From positions 1 through 64,000 of the forward strand of contig CANXME010000807.1 in the NCBI GenBank assembly GCA_948144175.1: DNA of 64,000 nucleotides, read 5' to 3'. The notes under the pieces are model-generated. The model saw only the letters and a list, made by a program, of their open reading frames with translations, was not told where the DNA came from and made no database searches. How positions within the stretch are numbered: the first letter of the stretch is position 1; each line of letters begins with the position of its first letter. The position numbers were made by a program, and so were the translations under genes. Source of the stretch: Closterium sp. NIES-65. Its lineage: Eukaryota; Streptophyta; Zygnematophyceae; Desmidiales; Closteriaceae. Positions 4,515-59,929 of this stretch are shown here, in pieces.

Positions 4515-5076
4515 AGGGGAGGTAGGCTGCAGCTGTAACTATGGCTGGACAGGCTGCGAACACTCTAAGGGAGGAGGAGGACCAGTAGAAGGTGGAAGAC
4601 CAAGAAACTGCTGCAGGAGTGGAACGAAGTACGGTCGAGGCCGCGTGGCGACGCCAGAAGCAGTAGGGACAGCACCAGTACCCTCAGTAGGAGCACCCGC
4701 TCCAGCAGCACCTCCAGCAGCTCCAGAACCTCCAGCAGCACCAGGAGCACCTCCAGCAGGACCGCCAGCGGCAGTCTCAGCGCCAACACCCGCAGCAGCA
4801 CCAGCTCCAGTCGAACCCGCAGGCCCAGCAGCTCCAGTACTACCAGTACGAGCACCTCCGGGACCCGCGACCGTAGCACCCTCAGCAGCCGAAGAACCTC
4901 CAGCACCAGCAGCACGACGCTAGCGCCGGGCAAACCACTCGCGCAGCTCCTTTGGAGAGAGTGGCTCCCGGCGAGACGAAGCACCCGGAGAACCTCCAGG
5001 TGGAGCACCTCCACACGCAGTACCCCCAGGCGTAGCACCCCCAGGCTCAGCACCCCCCGGCTCAGTAAGCACAGGC
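4515..5076 (-). repeat. Copia-A integrase-RT linker, Ala/Pro/Gly repeats
   Basis: A low-complexity linker. At 4979-5100 are short repeats reading GAEPGG in the element sense, and at 4640-4920 there are Gly/Ala-rich triplet repeats. Between them (about 4930-4975) is the motif REPLSPKELREWFARR, a near copy of a motif in Gag at 6955-6994. Linker length varies strongly between copies. Confidence 0.7.
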
Positions 5077-8000
5077 TCAGCACCCCCAGGCTGGTACCAG
5101 GAAGAGTGGGGGTGGGGGGAGGGACAAAGTGCGGTAGGGGAAGAGGCGGTAGTAGGGGACCAACTTGTCAAACGTGACGTCCTGGGAGGACAGAACACGG
5201 CGAGAGGTGGGGTGGTAGAACTGCCACCCAGGCGCGTCAGGGGGGAACCCCAAGAAGACGCAAGGAGCAGCACGAGGGGACAGCTTGTCCGCAGACAAGT
5301 TGCGGACAAACGCCCGAGATCCCCAGACCCAGAACGCCGACGCATCGCCAACCTTCCCCGTCCACAGCAGGGCTGGGGAGGTCTCCGGCCTGGAGACCCT
5401 GGGGTGGAGGTTGAGCTGATGCGCCGCGTACCTGACCGCAAACGGCCACAGAAAATGGGGGGCAGCCGCATGCATCATAGACGTACGAGCGACGTCCATG
5501 ACCATGCCAATGCGGCGCTCAGCAGTCCCATTTTGCTGCGGTGAGTCCGGAAGCGTGAAGGTCTGACGGATGCCGTGTGCACGACAGAAGGCTCGCAGAA
5601 GGCCAGAGGAAAACTCTCCGCCTCTGTCCGAGTGCAGACGCAAAACAGGAAAGTCCGAGCCAAAGCGCTGCCTAAGCTGAAGACGAGCTGCGCGGATCCT
5701 ATCGATCAACACCTCAGTGACATCACCCTTGCTGCGCAAGGGGAAGACTGTGGTGTAACGCGAGTAGTCGTCAACAACGAGCAGAAAGTAGCACTCGTGA
5801 CCTTGTCCACGGACGCGGGCTGGGCCCCACACGTCCATGTGAAGCGTCTGCAACGGGGCCTCTGTCGGAGGAAACTGGGAGGAGTGAGGGGCAGCACGCT
5901 GGCGCCCCTCGACACAGGGGACACAGGCAGGGCCACGGCCCTGAGGAAGGGGAGGGAGGGACCGGGGGAGACCAGACACAAGAAGACGGGAGGCCATGCC
6001 TCTGAGCCGAAGCAGAGAGGGGTGGCCAAGGCGGTGGTGCCAGAGGAGAGTCTCGTGAGACAGGAGACGACACGAACAGGGGGCAGACTTAGGACCAGAC
6101 CTGGACGCCGCAGCAAACACCTGACCCGACGCAGCTACCCTACCAGACTCAGCAACTAGAGAGGACGCAGTGGTCAGAGTGTACAGGCTCCACCCCGGCT
6201 GACGGGTGAACGTAGCCAGGTGGCGGCCTGTGCCAGCCTCTGTACAGTGGGTCACTCTCCGACGCGCAGGAGTGAACTGGTGGACCCCCGCATCCTGTAG
6301 GTCAGCACCACTCACCAGGTTCGTCGAGAACGAGGGGAGGTAGAGACCAGACAGGGTGCCAGAGGGAGCCGCCGGACAAGGGAGGACTGTGGAGAAGCGA
6401 GACAGGACAGGACCCCCAGAGGGGTCAGCCAGAGACACCGCAACCGGCCGACTAAGCGACGTGAGTGTGGTGCGGTCTCGAAAGAAGGAGCGAGACGCCC
6501 CAGAGTCAAGGGTGAAGGTGAGGGAGGCCGAAGCCGACGTAGTGCCTGAGAGCGCAGACTCACCAGTACCTGAGGACGCAGACACACCAGCACCTAGAGC
6601 AGCAGCGTTGCACGCACCTAGGGCAGCAGCCGTACCAGTACCTAGAGTAGCAGTCTCAATGCCCGCATCGGGCGGAAAACACCGGTAACGGTCACCCTCA
6701 TCACTAATAGAGACAGCATACATGGCAGAAAGAATAGCATCAAAGTCAAGATCAAAGATGGCCACACCCGCCCTAGACAACTCGCCCCAGCGAGGGATCT
6801 CTGAGGCCTCCGGGAACTGGTGACGCCACGCGTCCGTCAGGCGGCCAAAGCAGCGCTGGGTGGGGTGCGCACCCCCACACTGCTCACCCGCACGGTCGCC
6901 GGTGCGCAGGACGTAGGTGCACGGACCAAAATCCCCACCCCGCTGGCGTGCAGTGTACCACTCACGGAGCTGCTGAGGGGACAGGGTCTCACGACCGCGC
7001 TGCTGCTGCTGGCGCGACCCACCACCCGAGCCACTCCTCTGCGACGACCCGCGACCAGCTCCACCGCCACCCCCACCGCCTCCGCCTCCTCCGCTGCCTC
7101 CACCACTGCCGCCGCCTCCGCCGCCGCCTCCACGGCCGCCTCCTCCGCAACCTCCGCTCCAACCGCCACCGCCGCCACCGCCTCCGCCTCCACTGCCGCC
7201 ACCGACCCCTCCACCCCCACCTCCACTCACACCGCCACCCCCACTCCCCCCACCGCCTCCACCTCCACCTCCACCGCCCGCTCCTCCAGCTCCCTTGCCC
7301 CCCTTGCCCTTGCCAGGGCGGCGTCTCCCGCTAGGGGCAGACGCCGCACCGACCGACTCAAGACCAAGGAGGTCGGCCGCAGCAGCAGAGGCAACAGAGG
7401 GCAGCAGGGGGGAGGGAGAACACCCCTCAAAGATGGGGGTGCGCGGGTCACCTCGAGAGGCTCCTACAGCGACGATGCTCTTCTCTATCGCTAGGAGGGC
7501 CTTTTCGAGGAGGTCTACGGTGAGCGTGGTGGGACAGACTGAGAGAAAGTGGTCCCTGACTACGCGAAGGGAGTTAGGGAGGCGAGTGACTAGGAAGTAC
7601 AGAGTGATGTACATGGGGGGGGGGTTCGCGGCGCAGAAGTCAGCAGGGAGTGCAGCGCGGTAGCGAGTGTCACTAGTGCGGAGGTGCGTGATGAGGTCAG
7701 CTACGGTGGGAAAAGCAGCAAGGTCAGGGAAGAGGTACGGCAGCATGAGACGGCTCAGTGCAGCAGTGGCAGGGGAGGAGTAGCGCACGACTACAGCGTC
7801 GTACAAGGTCTGAGCACTCTTGTAGTGGCTAAAGTGCGCATGCTCGGAGGTAGGGAGGTGGCGACGCACAGCAAGACGTGCAGCAGCGTCGCGCGTGGCC
7901 CACTGGGAGCGAACAGTGGCGTCAGCATTAGCAGCAGGGGCAGGGGAAGCGCCAGAGGTAAGGTCAAAGAGAGAGAGGCCGTCTGCCCTATCGCACTGTA

Positions 8001-9069: not shown

Positions 9070-9081
9070 GCTCTGATACCA

Positions 9082-9214
9082 TGTGAGAATGAGAACAAGA
9101 ATGCATCAACTATGAATGAAGTGAGTACATATAGGAAACCCTAAAATGGGTTGTACCCCCTATGGGATACCCCACTATAGCCTACACAACAGCATAAGCT
9201 ATAATGTTCTGACA
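9082..9214 (-). repeat. Copia-A LTR, 5' copy
   Basis: 133 bp. It abuts the primer site (GCTCTGATACCA on the plus strand, 9070-9081) and is followed by target duplication ATCTC at 9215-9219. Confidence 0.93.
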
Positions 9215-47020: not shown

Positions 47021-47145
47021 TGTCAAAGTACAATCTTATTTGTAGGCTATAGTGGGGTACTCCTTATGGGGTACAACACTTCTAGGGTTAGTACTTGTAC
47101 CCCAACTCTTGCTAATCCAATCATTCCTGCACAGTTATTCTGACA
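47021..47145 (+). repeat. Copia-K LTR, 5' copy
   Basis: 125 bp, TGTCAAAGTAC to TTATTCTGACA, with core GTAGGCTATAGTGGGGTA and GGGGTACAACAC. The intact initiator-Met primer site follows. Confidence 0.85.
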
Positions 47146-47157
47146 TGGTATCAGAGC

Positions 47158-49429: not shown

Positions 49430-51546
49430 CTACCATGTATCTGGTAAGCGCAAGCGGAATGTAACTGGTGTCACCTGTGCCTCAACGAGAAAAGGACCAC
49501 AGAAGCGAGGCCGGAGTTTGGATGGAAGGTGAGACAGGTTCAAGTTGCGTGTGTCAAGAAGCACCTGATCTCCGACTGCTACTGAGTGATCACGTCGCTG
49601 ACGATCGGCATACTGCTTCTGGGAGTTCTGCATCATGGTGAGACGTCGCTGAGTCTTCTCCCATAGCTGCTGCATGGTGGTGACAAAGTCATGTGCGGCT
49701 TGGACGTGTGCCGGTGTAGTTGGCTGCTGTGGTGTGAGTGGTTCCCGTCCGTAACACAGGAAGAAAGGAGTTTTCCCTGTGGCCGCATGTGATGCGTTGT
49801 TGTAAGCGAACTCTAGGGTCGGTAACTGTGTGTCCCAGTGGCTGACGTTGTCCTTGCAAGCTGTGCGCAGTAACTGTTCAACCACTTGATTGAGTCGCTC
49901 TGTCTGTCCGTCAGTCTGGGGGGTGGTATGCTGAAGACATTCCCCAACAGTCCCATGAGCTCCTTCCAGAACTTACTCGTGAATTTGGGGTCTCTGTCTG
50001 AGATGAGTGTAGCGGGGATGCCGTGGATGGTGATGATGCGGTAGAAGAAGAGTCGAGCAGTTGCTTCAGCTGTAGCTGTGGCGTTGGTCGGTATGAAGTG
50101 ACCCATTTTGGAGAACTTATCGATCACCACGAGGATGGAATCATGTCCCCGTGAGGTCGAAGGAAGCCCTGTGATGAAGTCGAGGCTAACGACCTGCCAT
50201 GGCTGCTCCGGTACGGGTAGAGGCTGAAGTAACCCTGCTTTTTTCTGCTTGCTGCTCTTCATCCGCTGGCACGTGTCGCAAGAGGTGACGAACTGCTGCA
50301 CGTCTGCTGCCATCCCGGGCCAGTAGTAATACTTCGCTATCCCTGCTAACGTCTTGTTGCTCCCGAAATGTCCCGCGTAAGGTACGTCGTGAAACTCCTC
50401 CAATAGGATCTGCCGTAGCGGGGCGTAATTCGGTACCCAAATCTTTCCTGAACCCTTCCTTACAGCTAAGTCTTTCTCCCACTGTAATAGCTTCTTGGTC
50501 TGTGCTGTAGCAATCTCTGCGTCCACGGAGTACCCATGTTGGAATAGACCCTTGAGCAGAGGGTTCATCCCGTCGAGCTGGATGCCTGCTACATGTCCGG
50601 GGCGGCTCAACGCGTCTGCCTTGTTGTGTAGCCCGGGCTTGTAGACGATGTCGTAGTGGAAGTGAGTTTCCAGGAAGTCCACCCACCGCACCTGTCGTCG
50701 TGAGAGTGTCGGCTGTGACTTCAGGTATTTGAGACTGCAGTGGTCAGTATAGACTGTAGTCTTGGCTCCCTCTAGGTAACACCTCCACGCCTTGAAGGCT
50801 ATGACTATCGCTAAGGCTTCCTTGTCGTGAATGGGGTAGTTTAGTTCTGCTTCGTGTAGCTTCTTACTGAGGTAGGCGATGGGCTGCAAACCGCGTCCGT
50901 GATCCTGCATCAGTACTGCTCCGACTGCTTGGTCACTAGCGTCTGCTTCCACCACGTAGTCCTTGTCTAGATCCGGCAAGATGAGTACTGGCGCTGTAGT
51001 CAGTGCTGTCTGTAGCTGCTCCATGGCTTGCTGATGAAGGGTATCCCATTTGTAGGGCGTATCCTTTTTCAGTAGGCCGGTTAGTGGCGCTGCTATCTTA
51101 GCGTACTGCGGCACGAACCTGTTGTAGTAGTTGGCGAAGCCTAGGAACTGCTGCAACTCCTTCACGTTCTCTGGTACTTTCCACTTCTTGACGGCTTCGA
51201 TCTTCCGTGGGTCCACGTGTACGCCCTCGGCACTCACCATGTGCCCGAGAAACTGCACCTTCTTCAGGGCGAAGTCGCTCTTTGACAGCTTCACGTAGAA
51301 CTTGTTTTTCCGCAGGATCTCGAACACCTTCCGCAGATGCTCCACGTGCTCCTTCATGTTCTTGGAGTAGATGAGAATGTCGTCCAGGTATACCACCACG
51401 CACTCGTCCAGCAGGGGTCGTAAGATGTGATTCATCTCCGCCTGAAACGTTGCTGGTGCGTTGCAGAGTCCGAACGGCATCACCAAGTATTCGTAGGAGC
51501 CGTATCTGGTACGGAACGCTGTCTTGTGGACGGAGTTGTCTGCCAT
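49430..51546 (-). pseudogene. Gypsy-L reverse transcriptase, RNase H and integrase
   Basis: [17 protein letters not shown] and active site [13 protein letters not shown] (about 51372-51396), then [17 protein letters not shown]. RNase [39 protein letters not shown]. Integrase: HHCC zinc region ([11 protein letters not shown] ... CDTCQRMK), catalytic DFITGLP and [13 protein letters not shown], then EFAYNNASHAATGKTPF and the GDQVLLDTRNL block. The substrate is the element's own RNA and cDNA. A long frame covers most of it. Confidence 0.9.
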
Positions 51547-52950
51547 CTTGATCTGCCAGTAGCTCGATCGTAGGTCCAGCTTCGAAAATACTGTTGCTCC
51601 GCGCAGTTGATCGAGTAGGTCGTCTATGCGCGGTATGGGATATTTGTTTTTGACTGTCTATTTGTTCAGTGCGCGGTAGTCGATGCACATCCGTAGACTG
51701 CCGTCTGGTTTTGGAGTGAAGAGAACTGGTGCGCCGTAGGGAGAGGTGGATGGGCGGATCAGTTGTCTGTCCAGTAGATACTCTATCTGTTTTTTCATGT
51801 CTGTCAGTTCAGTCGGACTCAGTCGGTATGGTGCACGTGAGACGGGTTTCGCACCTGGTTCCTCCACGATCTCGTGCTCGTGGGTGCGTGCTGGAGGTAC
51901 GCCTGCAGGTAGGTCGTCGGGCATTATATCCTTGTACTGCTCCAAGACCTCTTTCACTGCTGCAGGTAGCTCGGAACTCGGCTTCTCCTCTGCTGCTGCC
52001 ATAACCAGTGCTAGGTAACCCGTGTTACTCTTGTTCACCGTCTGTTGGAACCGTGCCAGTGTCGTTTCAGGTACGTCCCCTGTATCCGTCCAGCTTCGCA
52101 GCTCCACCCGTTTCCCGTTGTTGTAGATGCACACCTTGCTGTTGACCCAATCGATCTCGGGGTTGAACTGCTTCAGGAAATCTCGCCCCAAGATAAAATC
52201 TAATCCTTTGATGTTGGTGACTGGTAGCTTTGGCTTCCACCTCAACGCACCTATATGCAGTTGCAGTGATGCTTCGCCGTGGATAGGAAGCTTCGTACCG
52301 TCCACCATGGTTGCTGAAAACTGGGTCTCTTCCGCCTTCTCTCCAATTTTCTCCAATGCTCCGCGGTCACACACCGAGTGAGATGCACCGCTGTCCACCA
52401 ATGCCTGGAGGCGTCGCCCATTGCATAACACCTCGAGGAGTAGTGGTTTCTGCTGTGCTGAGTAGCCAAAGAGGGTCTCGTTAACAGGATCATAGGGCAC
52501 ATCAAACTTAATACCTTCCCTTTTTCCTATACCTGACTCAGCGCTTTCCAACTTCACCTGGGGGGTAGGAGGATTTTTCCGAGGCTTGTATAATTTTTCC
52601 TGAGCCTGGATGTCTCCTCTAAGCCTTGGCAGTTGTGTAGGCTTTACCTGTGGGCGACGGGGAGCCTTAACAATGTGCTGCGGGGAGAGAATATTAACTC
52701 CACGGAACGCACGACCCTTCTCTACGCTCCGTAGTATTTTGCCCAACTTCTCAGGTACCTGAATAATTTCTAAAGGCTTTTTCTTGGCCTCTAGACCTCC
52801 CCTGAATTTTTTGAAGGCTTGTAAACCACGAGAAGCAATATTCTTCGTTAGAGCATCTTTATAGGATACTTTTAACGAATTCTTACTTTCGTGGGTGTTC
52901 GGCTGGAGTTTCCCGGTCAGTGCAGAGTCTTTTTTTCGCGGAGCCTCCAT
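51547..52950 (-). pseudogene. Gypsy-L protease and N-terminal reverse transcriptase
   Basis: A basic region, then aspartic protease ALVDSGASHSVCDRGAL (about 52380-52410) with partner motif FILGRDFLKQFNPEIDW, then the RT entry ELPAAVKEVLEQYKDIMPDDLPAGVPP, HEIVEEPGAKPVSRAPYRLSP and LIRPSTSPYGAPVLFTPKPDGSLRMCIDYRALN, all hallmark gypsy text. Confidence 0.9.
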
Positions 52951-56160: not shown

Positions 56161-57240
56161 TGGTTGAGCCTTTGGAGATCTCTTTTGACTCCTCTGGCCG
56201 CACTAAGGGGGGTGATTCTCGCCGCTGACGACACGGCGACCACTCGCCGCTCTCCATGCTTGGAGACTCCCCCTGGTTTTCCGCCTCGGCCGTCTTCGCC
56301 ACCTTCACAGCCTGCTGCCGTGGACTTTGGAGCTGAGATTGCTGGTGCTGAGTCAAATGGTGAGGGTTCTAGGGGTGTTGCAACTGGGGGTGCTGATTCT
56401 GGGGGTGCTGCGAGTCCTTGTGGCGGTGGAGTTGTGGGTGACCCGGCTGGAGGTACTGCTGGTGCTGGAGGTACTGGAGGTACTGCTGGAGATGCTAGAG
56501 GTACTGATGGAGGTGCTGCTATTGCTGGAGGTACTAGAGGTACTGCTGGTGCTGGAGGTGCTGGAGGTACTGCTGGAGGTGCTGCTGGTCCTGGAGGTAC
56601 TAGAGGTGCTGCTGGTGCTGGAGGTGCTGGAGCTGCTAATCCTGGAGGTCCTGGAGGTGCTGCTAGTGCTGGAGGTGTCGGAGCTCCTAGTCCTGGAGGT
56701 GCTACTAGTGCTGGAGATGCTGGAGCTGCTAGTCCTGGAGGTCCAACTGGTGCTGGAGGTGCTTGTGCTGCTGGTGCTGGAGGCGCTGGGGCTAGAGGTA
56801 CTGGAGGTGCTAGAGCTGCTGGTCCTGGAGGTGCTCGTACTGGAGGTACTGGAGCTGCCGGAGCTGGTGGTGCTTCTGCTGTTGGAGGTGCTACTGGTGC
56901 TGGAGGCGCTGGAGCTGGAGGTACTAGAGGTGCTGGAGCTGCCGGAGCAGGTGGTGGTGGTGGTGTTGGAGGTGCTGGAGGTGCTATTGGAGCTGCTAGC
57001 ACTGGAGGTGCTGGAGGTACTGCTGGTGCTGGAGGCGCTGGAGCTGGAGGTACTAGAGGTACTGGAGGTGCTGGAGCTGCTGGTCCTGGAGGTGCTCGTA
57101 CTAGAGGTGCTGGAGCTGCCGGAGCAGGTGGTGCTGCTGGTGCTGGAGGTGCTAGAGATGCGACTGGAGCTGCTGGTGCTGGAGGTGCTCGAGCTGCTGG
57201 TACTGGCCTGCGCCGACTGTTTTTCTACCTGCAGTGGTAG
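56161..57240 (+). repeat. Copia-K integrase-RT linker, large Gly/Ala repeat array
   Basis: 56340-57210 is built almost wholly from a 15- to 30-bp unit GGTGCTGGAGGTACTGCTGG, reading GGAGGTAGAGGA in one frame. It is the longest linker in the window (about 0.9 kb). All three frames of either strand stay largely open through it. Confidence 0.75.
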
Positions 57241-59187
57241 TCGTCCCTGCCGCCGCATGACTCGGCCCTTCGCCAGGTTCTTAGTCTTCGTTTCCACTGG
57301 CCTCACTCCACCTATCCTGTGTCCACCGACAGACCAGTCTCAGCCACAACTACTGCCTGTCTCCCCGCTGCCTGCTCCTGCTCCTCACACTGAGGTGACT
57401 GAGTCCCTGACTGAGCGTCGTGAGCCTGAGACTTGTGCTTCCACAAATGTTCGTGCTCGTCGTGTCGCCCGTCCACGTCCTCCTGCTGTCTCAGGCACTC
57501 ACGGTATGGCACTTCGTCCTTCTGTTCCACAGCATTTTGTTCTGCCAGAGCCTCCCGCGTCCTCTCTTCCACACGTTCCTAACCCTGAGTCTGACCTTGC
57601 TCGTGCTTCCAGTCCTACTGTCTCTCGTCTCCTCGCTACTGTCGTCACTGACCCTGACTTTGAGTCTACTACTGCGTTTGCCCTAGTCACTGAGCTAGTC
57701 GACTTTGCAACTAGGAGTCGTCTCGACTACGTCGCGAGTCTTGTTACTGAGTCTGACTTTGACTGTCCTCCATTCGTCGGGGGTGAGCCTGCCCTTGGCA
57801 GTGACGTCCTTGAGGACAGGCAGTTTCAGCTTGAGTGTCTTGCGACCGCTTTACCTCGTTTCGCATCCATGGTACTTTGCCCTGAGGGAGACCCGGATGC
57901 ACTGGACATCCTGACCCCGCGCTCTTACGCTGAGGCGATCGCGGGTGAGTACTCCTCTCAGTGGCAGACAGCCATGGATGCAAAGATGGCTTCCTGGAAG
58001 TCCACATGCACCTACGTCGACGAGGTTCCTCCTTCTGGGGCGAACATAGCCGATGCCATGTGGATGTTCAGAGTGATTCGGCCGCCGTGTTCTCCGCCTG
58101 CCTTCAAGGCGCGTTACGTTGCTCGAGGCTTCAATCAGCGACTGGGGGTCGACTTCTTCCAGACCTTCTCCCCCACCCCAAAGATGACTACTCTTCAGGT
58201 ATTGCTACACGTTGCAGCACAACATGACTACGAGCTGCACTCCCTCGACTTCTCGACAACTTTCTTGCAGGGCAGCCTTCACGAGGAGATCTGGTTGCGC
58301 CGCCCACTTGGCTTCACTGGGTCGTTTCCTGCGGGTACCCAGTGGAGCCTCCGGCGACCAGTCTACGGTCTTCGCCAGGCGCCCCGCGAGTAGCACGACA
58401 CACTGAGGACTACATTTGCGGCTCTTGGGTTCGCTCCTTCCTCTGCTGGCCCGTCGATGTTTCTATGCACCAACACTATCCTGCCGCCGTTCTACATTCT
58501 CATGTATGTCGACGACTTGGTTTTTGCTACTGCTGACACTGAGGCGCTGGCCCTAGTGAAGGCGGAGCTGCAGGAGAGACACACCTGCACTGATCTAGGT
58601 AAGCTGCGTAGCTATCTTGGCTTGCAGATCATCCGGGACAGAGCACGGCGCACCATCACCCTGACTCAGTCACACATAATGCACCAGGTCCTTCAGCGCT
58701 TCGGCTTCCAGTACTCCTCGCCACAGCCCACTCCTCTGTCTATTAGCCACTCGCTCCCAGCTCCACCTTCAAACGAGTCCGTAGAGCCGAGTGGTCCGTA
58801 CCCAGAGCTTATGGGTTGCCTCACGTACCTGATGACGTGCTCACGACCTGACCTCGCGTACCCTCTCAGCTTCCTGGCTTGCTACGTGGCTCTCGGTAGA
58901 CACCGAAAGGAGCACTTTGATGTTGCGAAGAGGGTATTGCGTTGCTTGTGCAGTACATCGGGCATGGGGATCGTGCTCGGAGGACGAGGTCCAGTGGTGC
59001 TTACAGGTCACTTCGACGCTTCTTGGGTCGACGACCAGGCGACTCAGCGTTCGTCACAGGGTTACACCTTTAGTCTTTACTCTGGTTCTGTCTCGTGGAG
59101 GTCCACTCGTTCTTCTTCTGTACTTGGTTCCAGCTGTGAGGCTGAGATCTACGCTGGGGCCATGGCTGCACAGGAGCTACGCTGGCT
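57241..59187 (+). pseudogene. Copia-K reverse transcriptase and first part of RNase H
   Basis: Pre-RT blocks LVTELVDFATRSRLDYVAS, GGEPALGSDVLEDRQFQLEC, LTPRSYAEAIAGEYSSQWQ, RT from STCTYVDEVPPSGANIADAM, active-site YVDDLVFATADTEALALVK (about 58505-58560), YLGLQIIRDRARRTITLTQ, then RNase H up to CEAEIYAGAMAAQELRW, where TRIM M interrupts. About two breaks. Confidence 0.83.
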
Positions 59188-59326
59188 TGTCAGAGGTCCA
59201 CTGGTGATCCCCGATTGATCCTAGGGAAGGGTTACAGGCACGGTTGCCTGGGGGGTTATGGGCACACTGACCCGCTACTTAAACAAGCCCTTTTATCCCA
59301 ATGGTCTAGTGGTTGGGATTCTGACA
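59188..59326 (+). repeat. TRIM M LTR, 5' copy
   Basis: 139 bp, TGTCAGAGGTCC to GGATTCTGACA. It lacks the LTR core of the copias but shares the ATTCTGACA end. A TACTTAAAC box lies about 30 bp before the A box. Confidence 0.95.
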
Positions 59327-59366
59327 TGGTATCAGAGCGAAGGTCTCGGGTTCGAATCCCGGTGTA
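59302..59366 (+). promoter_or_regulatory. tRNA-like segment with pol III A and B boxes across the LTR/primer-site junction of TRIM M
   Basis: A box TGGTCTAGTGG (59302-59312) fits the consensus TRGYNNARNNG. B box GGTTCGAATCC (59349-59359) fits GGTTCGANTCC. The 36-bp gap is in the tRNA range. Around the A box the text is near the D arm of tRNA-Glu. Around the B box a 5-bp stem (TCGGG/CCCGG, one G-T pair) closes a 7-nt loop TTCGAAT, a proper T arm. The middle arm is TCTGA/TCAGA with a 7-nt loop, made from the LTR end and the primer site. No matching acceptor stem is seen, so it is not a tRNA gene. Confidence 0.75.
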
Positions 59367-59395
59367 TGCACTTCGGGCATCCCAGTGCGGGGGGG

Positions 59396-59534
59396 TGTCA
59401 GAGGTTCACTGGTGATCCCCGATTGATCCTAGGGAAGGGTTACAAGCACGGTTGCCTGGGGGGTTATGGGCGCACTGACCCGCTACTTAAACAAGCCCTT
59501 TTATCCCAATGGTCTAGTGGTTGGGATTCTGACA
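59396..59534 (+). repeat. TRIM M LTR, 3' copy
   Basis: 139 bp, 136/139 identical to the 5' copy, including the A box. Followed by TGGCT. Confidence 0.95.
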
Positions 59535-59539
59535 TGGCT

Positions 59540-59929
59540 GACCTACCTGCTGACCAAATTCTCCTCCAGTTCTGTACGTCGACAACAAGGCCATGCTTGT
59601 CTTGTATCGTGAGCAGAGAATGGAGCACAGAACGAAGCACATTGCTCTTCGCTACTTTCTTGCTCGAGAGCTGCAGCAGCGTGGTCAGCTTCGCCTTTCC
59701 TACGTGGCCTCTCGGGCCAGCACTGCTGATGTCTTCACCAAGGCTCTCAGGTCTGGTGATCTTCAACGTTTTTGCACCGCTCTTGGGCTTCTGCCCGTTC
59801 TACCTTACCTGCTTGTCTCTTGATCTTGCACTTGTTGCACACTGATATCTATATTTATACCTGCATGTTTCCTCTTGCTAGGTTGTGATCAGTGTACTGC
59901 CTTTGCTATTATAACTCTACATGTGAACA
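59540..59929 (+). pseudogene. Copia-K last part of RNase H and 3' untranslated part
   Basis: Reads SSSVLYVDNKAMLVLYREQRMEHRTKHIALRYFLARELQQRGQLRLSYVAS and DLQRFCTALGLLPVLPYLLVS to the stop near 59822, then a T/A-rich untranslated part that continues at 61862 beyond DNA transposon N. Confidence 0.8.

What the first reader, a model, noticed from the sequence alone, without database searches (positions are those of the whole stretch)
59188..59534. A 347-bp TRIM whose LTR/primer-site junction is built into a tRNA-like pol III promoter
Seen: A box TGGTCTAGTGG at the LTR end and B box GGTTCGAATCC in the 69-bp interior, 36 bp apart. There is a T-arm stem-loop and a central hairpin formed by the LTR end TCTGA and the primer site TCAGA. 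The D-arm and T-arm text are close to tRNA-Glu. Known: pol III reads internal A/B boxes, and the plant TRIM Cassandra carries a 5S rRNA promoter in its LTR. Inference: M may be transcribed by pol III, starting just upstream of the A box. The next T4 run after the B box is at 59499-59502 in the 3' LTR, just before the matching site, so a pol III transcript could span nearly one full unit. A tRNA mimic could also help packaging or priming.
Basis: partly seen in the sequence, partly recalled or inferred. Interest (0 to 1): 0.85.

Follow-up and report, generated by a model that had tools for sequence, protein, structure and literature searches.

The report
Mini-retrotransposon with split tRNA-like promoter
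A very abundant miniature retrotransposon carries tRNA-gene-like control motifs split across the junction between its terminal repeat and its primer site, so it may be copied by the enzyme that normally reads tRNA genes, but no transcript has been examined.

Summary
Window 59188-59534 is a TRIM: two 139-bp LTRs (3 differences), a 69-bp interior with an iMet-type primer site and a G-run PPT, 5-bp TSD TGGCT, inserted in a copia reverse-transcriptase gene. The LTR/PBS junction occurs at 4582 places in an 874-Mb eukaryotic assembly, with at least three LTR types. A box (LTR end) and B box (interior, beyond the PBS) match consensus exactly at tRNA-gene distance; the B-box surroundings read as a tRNA variable loop and T arm. 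The boxes are better kept than distal U3 and far better than the pol II-like TACTTAAAC text, but no better than several neighbouring segments. The A box is also the loop of a 7-bp U5 hairpin with compensatory changes genome-wide (G-C 761 places, 91 expected), and multiplied lineages altered the A box while keeping the hairpin. TRIM/copia chimeras at the PBS point to copia mobilisation. Closest known: Helenus/TRIMp3 (Kojima 2024), where both boxes lie in the LTR; here the promoter would straddle the junction, so only a 5' LTR joined to the interior could be a promoter. Pol III use is plausible, not shown.

The parts
59183..59187 (+). left target-site duplication TGGCT
59188..59326 (+). 5' LTR, TGTCAG...CTGACA
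59276..59284 (+). TACTTAAAC, pol II TATA-like text; most variable segment measured
59285..59294 (+). AAGCCCTTTT, proposed R region (inferred) ending in a T4 run
   Evidence: R is inference
59295..59319 (+). U5 hairpin ATCCCAA / TTGGGAT with the A box as loop; compensatory changes
59302..59312 (+). A-box text TGGTCTAGTGG
59320..59336 (+). LTR-end/PBS hairpin TCTGA-CATGGTA-TCAGA
   Evidence: TTCTGACA+PBS also in copia-type elements
59327..59338 (+). PBS TGGTATCAGAGC, complementary to the 3' end of an iMet-type tRNA
59341..59362 (+). tRNA-type variable loop AGGTC plus T arm (stem 59346-59350/59358-59362, 7-nt loop)
59349..59359 (+). B box GGTTCGAATCC
59389..59395 (+). polypurine tract GGGGGGG
59396..59534 (+). 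3' LTR
59499..59502 (+). TTTT, candidate pol III terminator in the 3' LTR
59510..59520 (+). A-box copy in the 3' LTR, without a B box downstream
59535..59539 (+). right target-site duplication TGGCT
56327..59818 (+). host copia coding region (RVT_2) interrupted by the TRIM
   Evidence: for pieces 56327-58393 and 58457-59185; right limit approximate, by eye

Best explanation
A high-copy TRIM family that copia elements mobilise in trans, carrying a tRNA-derived (type 2) pol III promoter split across the LTR/interior boundary: A box in U5, B box beyond the PBS, with the LTR end and PBS in the place of the anticodon arm. Shown: TRIM anatomy, copy number, TSDs, iMet-matching PBS, consensus A and B boxes at tRNA distance in several LTR types, a covarying U5 hairpin round the A box, and chimeras with copia-type elements at the PBS. 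Inferred: pol III starts a few bases upstream of the 5' LTR hairpin, reads through interior and U3, and stops at the TTTT of the 3' LTR, giving a roughly unit-length RNA with a short R (AAGCCCTTTT). Copia reverse transcriptase and integrase then use iMet priming. Because the 3' LTR and solo LTRs have no B box, only a 5' LTR joined to the interior would be a promoter. The same stretch also works as RNA structure next to the primer site.
For: A/B pair once in the window, 0.01 expected. PBS followed 3-30 bases later by a B box: 3276 places in the genome, reversed pattern 0. Distance between box starts 47 (type I) and 44 (type II). The tRNA covariance model hits exactly this stretch, 15.9 and 16.4 bits; the printed E-values 2.7 and 0.69, divided by 4227 families, are about 6e-4 and 2e-4 (my division). 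The one lineage-level B-box change (A 46, T 6 of 52 rows) is at a consensus N position; nine B-box columns (without that N and the CpG G) diverge 1.7%, the 12 bases after the B box 6.6%. TACTTAAAC diverges 17.5%, A box 3.5%. T4 only before the matching site. PBS complement with iMet-type T arm: 23 exact places, 50 with up to 2 mismatches, reversed control 1. Two copia-type LTRs in the window end in TTCTGACA or TTCTCACA before the same PBS. Chimeric junctions in L062, L064, L071, L086, L092, L095, L105.
Against: No transcript data. Below the Rfam gathering score, no ARAGORN call. A box 3.5% is about the same as mid U3 3.7%, AAGCCCTTTT 3.9% and the stems 3.1% and 2.7%; B box as a whole 3.7% is the same as the spacer before it, 3.6%. 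In the G-C hairpin lineage (761 places) 42 of the 100 listed loops have lost a base of the A box and 18 more end in A instead of G (hand tally). B box exact in 39 of 52 rows not chosen for it, two places entered twice, so 38 of 50 places. No acceptor stem. tRNA-Glu pattern 0 places. RNA stability no better than shuffles.
Confidence: 0.5

Rival explanations
1. RNA-structure only: the U5 hairpin, the LTR-end/PBS hairpin and the post-PBS hairpin form a leader for packaging, dimerisation or primer placement of a pol II transcript; the tRNA likeness is coincidence or a relic.
For: Hairpin covariation: A-U 8266, G-C 761, G.U 224, A.C 100 places, with 91 G-C expected under independence; pair counts on 34 distinct U5 ends: 98.1% paired, 7 two-sided cells against 1.7 shuffled, 0 of 500. 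The tRNA D-arm pairing shows no two-sided change. Among 28 other PBS-like sites a hairpin after the PBS scores 5.5 on average against 3.9 shuffled, 4 of 28 with p at or below 0.05. In Ty1, stem-loops at the RNA 5' end are needed for retrotransposition (PMC5454406, passages).
Against: The T stem is not kept: one pair is broken in 13 of 42 distinct interiors, no compensation in any of the 5 pairs, although the B-box letters persist. The RNA as a whole is no more stable than shuffles (z 0.03 and 0.42). Exact A box, exact B box, AGGTC and tRNA distance together are not needed for hairpins. The covariation counts are copies, not independent events.
Confidence: 0.33
2. The post-PBS T-arm text is an extended complement of the primer tRNA-iMet (Ty1-like extra pairing or copied tRNA), not a sense B box.
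For: The PBS is exact to the iMet-type 3' end and type I pairs two further bases (GA). T arms are nearly palindromic.
Against: Beyond the PBS the iMet complement aligns only over 12 columns, with one mismatch, one gap and an offset, while the sense reading has a perfect B box plus AGGTC variable loop in sense. The A box has no counterpart.
Confidence: 0.06
3. Ordinary pol II TRIM; TACTTAAAC is the TATA box, and the boxes are kept only because copies are young and share recombined 3' LTR halves.
For: 8 of 17 distinct 347-bp insertions among the best matches have identical LTRs, so there was little time to diverge (sample biased to copies like the window's). Different LTR types within one element (L064, L076, L078).
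Against: The TACTTAAAC text reads TACTGAAAC, TACACAAAC, TACTTAACA and so on in different copies (17.5% divergence, 4 of 9 columns lineage-variable). Chance A/B pairing 0.01 per window.
Confidence: 0.11

Closest known systems
Helenus (TRIMp3), Kojima 2024, PMC10886601
   Same: TRIM, tRNA-derived A and B boxes, PBS and PPT, 5-bp TSD as in fungal and plant Helenus, thought (fungal) to depend on copia, thousands of copies possible, A/B text kept while mostly no functional tRNA is encoded.
   Different: In Helenus the tRNA-derived sequence, boxes A and B, lies inside the LTR. Here only the A box is in the LTR; the B box is in the interior after the PBS, and the LTR end/PBS fill the anticodon-arm place. 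The paper lists one plant host, Selaginella moellendorffii.
Cassandra (5S rRNA TRIM), as described in PMC10886601 and passages of PMC7215508
   Same: TRIM with a pol III promoter; the RNA is said to start in the 5' LTR and end in the 3' LTR with a short (18 bp) R; tandem arrays.
   Different: 5S promoter wholly inside the LTR; here a split tRNA-type promoter. No Rfam 5S match.
Copia-type elements of the same genome (window 47021-47157 plus, 9070-9214 minus)
   Same: TGTCA...TTCTGACA or TTCTCACA LTR tips, same PBS, LTRs of about 125-133 bp.
   Different: By eye no A box or U5 hairpin; no B box in the window outside the TRIM; LTR centres unrelated by eye.
tRNA-headed SINEs (recalled)
   Same: A and B boxes at tRNA distance.
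   Different: Here LTRs, PBS, PPT and a fixed 5-bp TSD.

Membership tests
TRIM | two short LTRs with TG...CA tips, total under 1 kb | tested here: met
TRIM | PBS complementary to a cellular tRNA | tested here: met
   PBS complement next to an iMet-type T arm, 23 exact places; that these are iMet genes rests on the recalled pattern
TRIM | fixed-length TSD | tested here: met
   exact 5-bp in 21 of 24 distinct flank pairs among L001-L030, five of them after moving a match end by 2 bp; misses L022 (4 of 5) and L014/L015, overlapping parts of one tandem array; L001 and L004 look like one insertion
Helenus | tRNA-derived sequence with boxes A and B inside the LTR | tested here: not met
   A box in LTR, B box only in interior
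Helenus | 5-bp TSD (plant and fungal form) | tested here: met
Helenus | mobilised by copia (proposed for fungal Helenus) | tested here: inconclusive
   shared LTR tips and PBS, chimeras; no direct test
TRIMp3 | working pol III promoter | not testable with these tools
   sequence only; no RNA or occupancy data
Cassandra | 5S rRNA sequence in LTR | tested here: not met
   no Rfam match at gathering score in the window; no 5S among matches to E 10 in 59000-59700
Retrozyme | hammerhead ribozyme in LTR (recalled) | tested here: not met
   no hammerhead among Rfam matches
tRNA gene or intact tRNA pseudogene | complete cloverleaf | tested here: not met
   ARAGORN none; 15.9/16.4 bits against 29; no acceptor stem

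The most novel reading that the evidence does not exclude
A TRIM whose pol III promoter is split by the LTR boundary so that it exists only at the 5' LTR/interior junction and is rebuilt by each round of reverse transcription. The PBS sits in the anticodon-arm place, and the A box doubles as the loop of a conserved U5 hairpin. 3' LTRs and solo LTRs are promoter-dead by design, which solves the two-promoter problem of LTR elements.
Probability: 0.4. Interest if true: 0.68.

Novelty: new variant of a known kind. Interest (0 to 1): 0.52.

Why it matters
If true, it adds a further layout of pol III-driven LTR elements, one where promoter, primer site and RNA leader are one structure. It makes clear predictions: no transcription from solo LTRs, a defined short R, and pol III occupancy at thousands of dispersed sites. 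It also shows how a small-RNA gene promoter can be fitted to an LTR element without being duplicated in both LTRs.

Tried and rejected
Extended iMet complement as source of the T-arm text: disfavoured, alignment poor and orientation sense. Hammerhead/retrozyme and 5S: no Rfam match. RNA stability as evidence: none, z 0.03 and 0.42. T-arm stem as a conserved RNA helix: rejected, no compensation. CTAG in the A-box loop as a kissing-loop palindrome: not kept in the 10-nt loops. tRNA-Glu of this genome as ancestor: one narrow pattern, 0 places, so untested rather than refuted. A search with the 81-bp junction as DNA returned nothing; the tool says common words are skipped. IMG/VR scan for a 26-base junction: 0. 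Bacterial promoter/terminator scan and tandem repeat finder: nothing. In print: searches of the held library showed Helenus, Ajax and Cassandra; in those listings and the papers opened I saw no element with boxes split across the LTR/PBS junction. Most listed papers were not opened; subscription papers and Repbase were not searched.

First conservation counts (for segments) collapsed LTR ends and interiors that were identical between places, which removes well-kept copies. The values moved little (A box 3.3 to 3.5%, mid U3 3.0 to 3.7%, B box 3.8 to 3.7%); the new ones are used here.

Full report
What is there. Window 59188-59534 is a complete TRIM: LTRs 59188-59326 and 59396-59534 (139 bp, 3 differences), interior 59327-59395, PBS TGGTATCAGAGC directly after the 5' LTR, seven G directly before the 3' LTR, TSD TGGCT. 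It interrupts a copia gene whose two pieces match RVT_2. The same insertion with the same or nearly the same left flank occurs at three more places, L001, L002 and L004.

The family. The assembly has 874 Mb in 2400 contigs; one contig carries a chlI gene in a plastid-like setting, so it is a plastid-bearing eukaryote or contains one; the species is unknown. The 37-base LTR/PBS junction with up to 3 mismatches occurs at 4582 places, reversed control 0. A 28-base U3 anchor of type I with up to 3 mismatches occurs at 5550 places. Places are not independent insertions: L001/L002/L003, L007/L008, L011/L012, L017/L019 and L024/L025 share flanks, the last two pairs on opposite strands, so part of the assembly is duplicated. 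At least three LTR types share the 3' half of the LTR, the PBS and the T-arm text but differ in distal U3 and in interior length; units are about 208 bp (type I) and about 235 bp (type II), and tandem or mixed arrangements occur (L014/L015, L064, L076, L078, L089). Among L001-L030, the copies most like the window's, TSDs are exact in 21 of 24 distinct flank pairs, five of them after moving a match end by 2 bp. 8 of 17 distinct 347-bp insertions have identical LTRs.

tRNA likeness. A box TGGTCTAGTGG and B box GGTTCGAATCC fit the type 2 pol III consensus (consensus recalled; Kojima gives TRGCY and YGG, and GGTTC). At that spacing and up to 3 mismatches the pair is expected 0.01 times in the window and found once. 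The distance between box starts is 47 in type I and 44 in type II; 44 is the T8-G52 distance of a class I tRNA in standard numbering (recalled). From 59341 the text reads as variable loop AGGTC, T stem of five pairs (one G-U), 7-nt loop TTCGAAT. The Rfam tRNA model hits 59301-59363 with 15.9 bits and the type II copy L079 with 16.4 bits, gathering 29. The printed E-values, 2.7 and 0.69, count all 4227 families; for the tRNA family alone they are about 6e-4 and 2e-4 (my division). ARAGORN calls none in the window or in 16 loci. There is no acceptor stem. The middle arm TCTGA/TCAGA is made of the LTR tip and PBS, and a copia-type element in the window has the same TTCTGACA plus PBS, so this arm comes with the copia-type junction and only the D-side and T-side text is special to the TRIM.

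Conservation. Anchors bias a sample, so I used LTRs whose boxes were not part of the search: all LTRs of L091-L110 (chosen by a U3 anchor) and those of L061-L090 that are not followed by the exact junction. That gave 69 rows after removing true duplicates; 10 partial rows were dropped, 59 used. Divergence from the majority base: rest of U3 9.1% (28 anchored positions included; 10.5% in the 29 rows without that anchor), mid U3 3.7%, TACTTAAAC text 17.5%, AAGCCCTTTT 3.9%, 5' stem 3.1%, A box 3.5%, 3' stem 2.7%, LTR tip 4.4%. In the 29 rows the A box is 2.8% and mid U3 2.5%. For 52 interior rows (two admitted by hand, two places entered twice): seven bases before the B box 3.6%, B box 3.7%, B box without the CpG G and the variable N 1.7%, next 12 bases 6.6%; the B box is exact (A or T at the N) in 39 of 52 rows, 38 of 50 places. 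So the boxes are kept, but not above all of the rest.

U5 hairpin. The A box is the loop of ATCCCAA/TTGGGAT, which RNAfold on 76 bases puts at probability 0.67-1.0 per pair, against 0 for the tRNA D-stem. On 56 U5 ends from that unbiased sample (identical ends collapsed; 6 low-scoring rows dropped; 34 distinct in the tool's count) 98.1% of cells pair and 7 cells have two-sided changes (1.7 shuffled, 0 of 500); the six slid versions give none. The D-arm pairing shows no two-sided change. Genome-wide the closing pair is A-U 8266, G-C 761, G.U 224, A.C 100 places, 91 G-C expected under independence. These are copies, not events, but the G-C form occurs with at least three loop types, and L106 has a second compensated pair. 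In the 100 listed G-C hairpins, by hand tally, 39 have the exact A box, 42 a 10-nt loop, 18 an 11-nt loop ending in A (in 17 of these the stem gains a T-A pair) and 1 another loop. Those lineages multiplied, so a perfect A box is not essential, or those lineages have a weaker promoter. This is the main evidence against a strict pol III reading. The T stem, by contrast, is not kept as a stem: one pair is broken in 13 of 42 distinct interiors and no pair shows compensation, while B-box letters persist.

Copia link. The PBS matches GCTCTGATA plus CCA, the 3' end of an iMet-type tRNA: 23 exact places next to GGATCGAAACC, 50 with up to 2 mismatches, reversed control 1; letters were shown for one place, and iMet identity rests on the recalled pattern. 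In L092, L095, L105, L064 and L086 a non-TRIM LTR end abuts PBS plus TRIM interior; in L071, L086, L092 and L095 a TRIM LTR abuts PBS plus another interior; in L062 a TRIM interior is followed by a copia-type LTR (read by eye). Such joins at the PBS are what template switching in shared particles would give; that copia supplies the enzymes is inference.

How it most likely works. Pol III would assemble on A plus B at the 5' LTR/interior junction, start upstream of the hairpin, and stop at the TTTT of the 3' LTR, 208 bp downstream of the matching TTTT. If it starts at or just before AAGCCC, the RNA has a 10-nt R, AAGCCCTTTT, comparable with the 18-bp R that Kojima's paper reports for Cassandra. 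Then iMet priming, copia reverse transcription and integration follow. Start site, stop site and R are inference. A consequence is that the 3' LTR and solo LTRs lack a B box and would be silent.

Known kinds. Kojima 2024 (PMC10886601; I read parts 1-4 of 6 of the text and the figure and table section) defines Helenus as TRIMs with tRNA-derived sequence in their LTRs and groups Helenus, Ajax and Cassandra as TRIMp3; one plant host is listed, and pol III use of Helenus is itself unproven there. The present family works like TRIMp3 but fails the defining position of the B box, so I file it as a new variant. Cassandra tandem arrays: PMC7215508 (passages). PMC3532108 (passages) describes an ant TRIM with a leucine-tRNA PBS and 4-bp TSDs; Ty1 leader structure: PMC5454406 (passages). 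Other papers: search listings only.

Noticed in passing
window 59188-59534 and L001, L002, L004: The same TRIM insertion with identical or nearly identical left flank sits on four contigs; together with L017/L019 and L024/L025 (same insertions, opposite strands) this suggests duplicated or uncollapsed segments in the assembly.
   Followed up: partly
L062, L064, L071, L086, L092, L095, L105: Chimeric elements in which TRIM and copia-type LTRs or interiors are exchanged at the PBS.
   Followed up: partly
window 15045, L027, L088, L095: Some copia-type elements have a hairpin within a few bases after the PBS, with different sequence but kept pairing; 4 of 28 PBS-like sites reach p 0.05 or less. 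It could be a priming or packaging structure.
   Followed up: partly
L031-L060: Organelle-like contigs: an AT-rich type with chlI (L047), and another with many GCAAGC-type repeats and clustered tRNAs (L031).
   Followed up: partly
window 49813-52950 minus: Retroelement ORFs with RVT_1, RNase H, integrase zinc-binding and aspartic protease domains, a gypsy-like set, near the copia elements.
   Followed up: no
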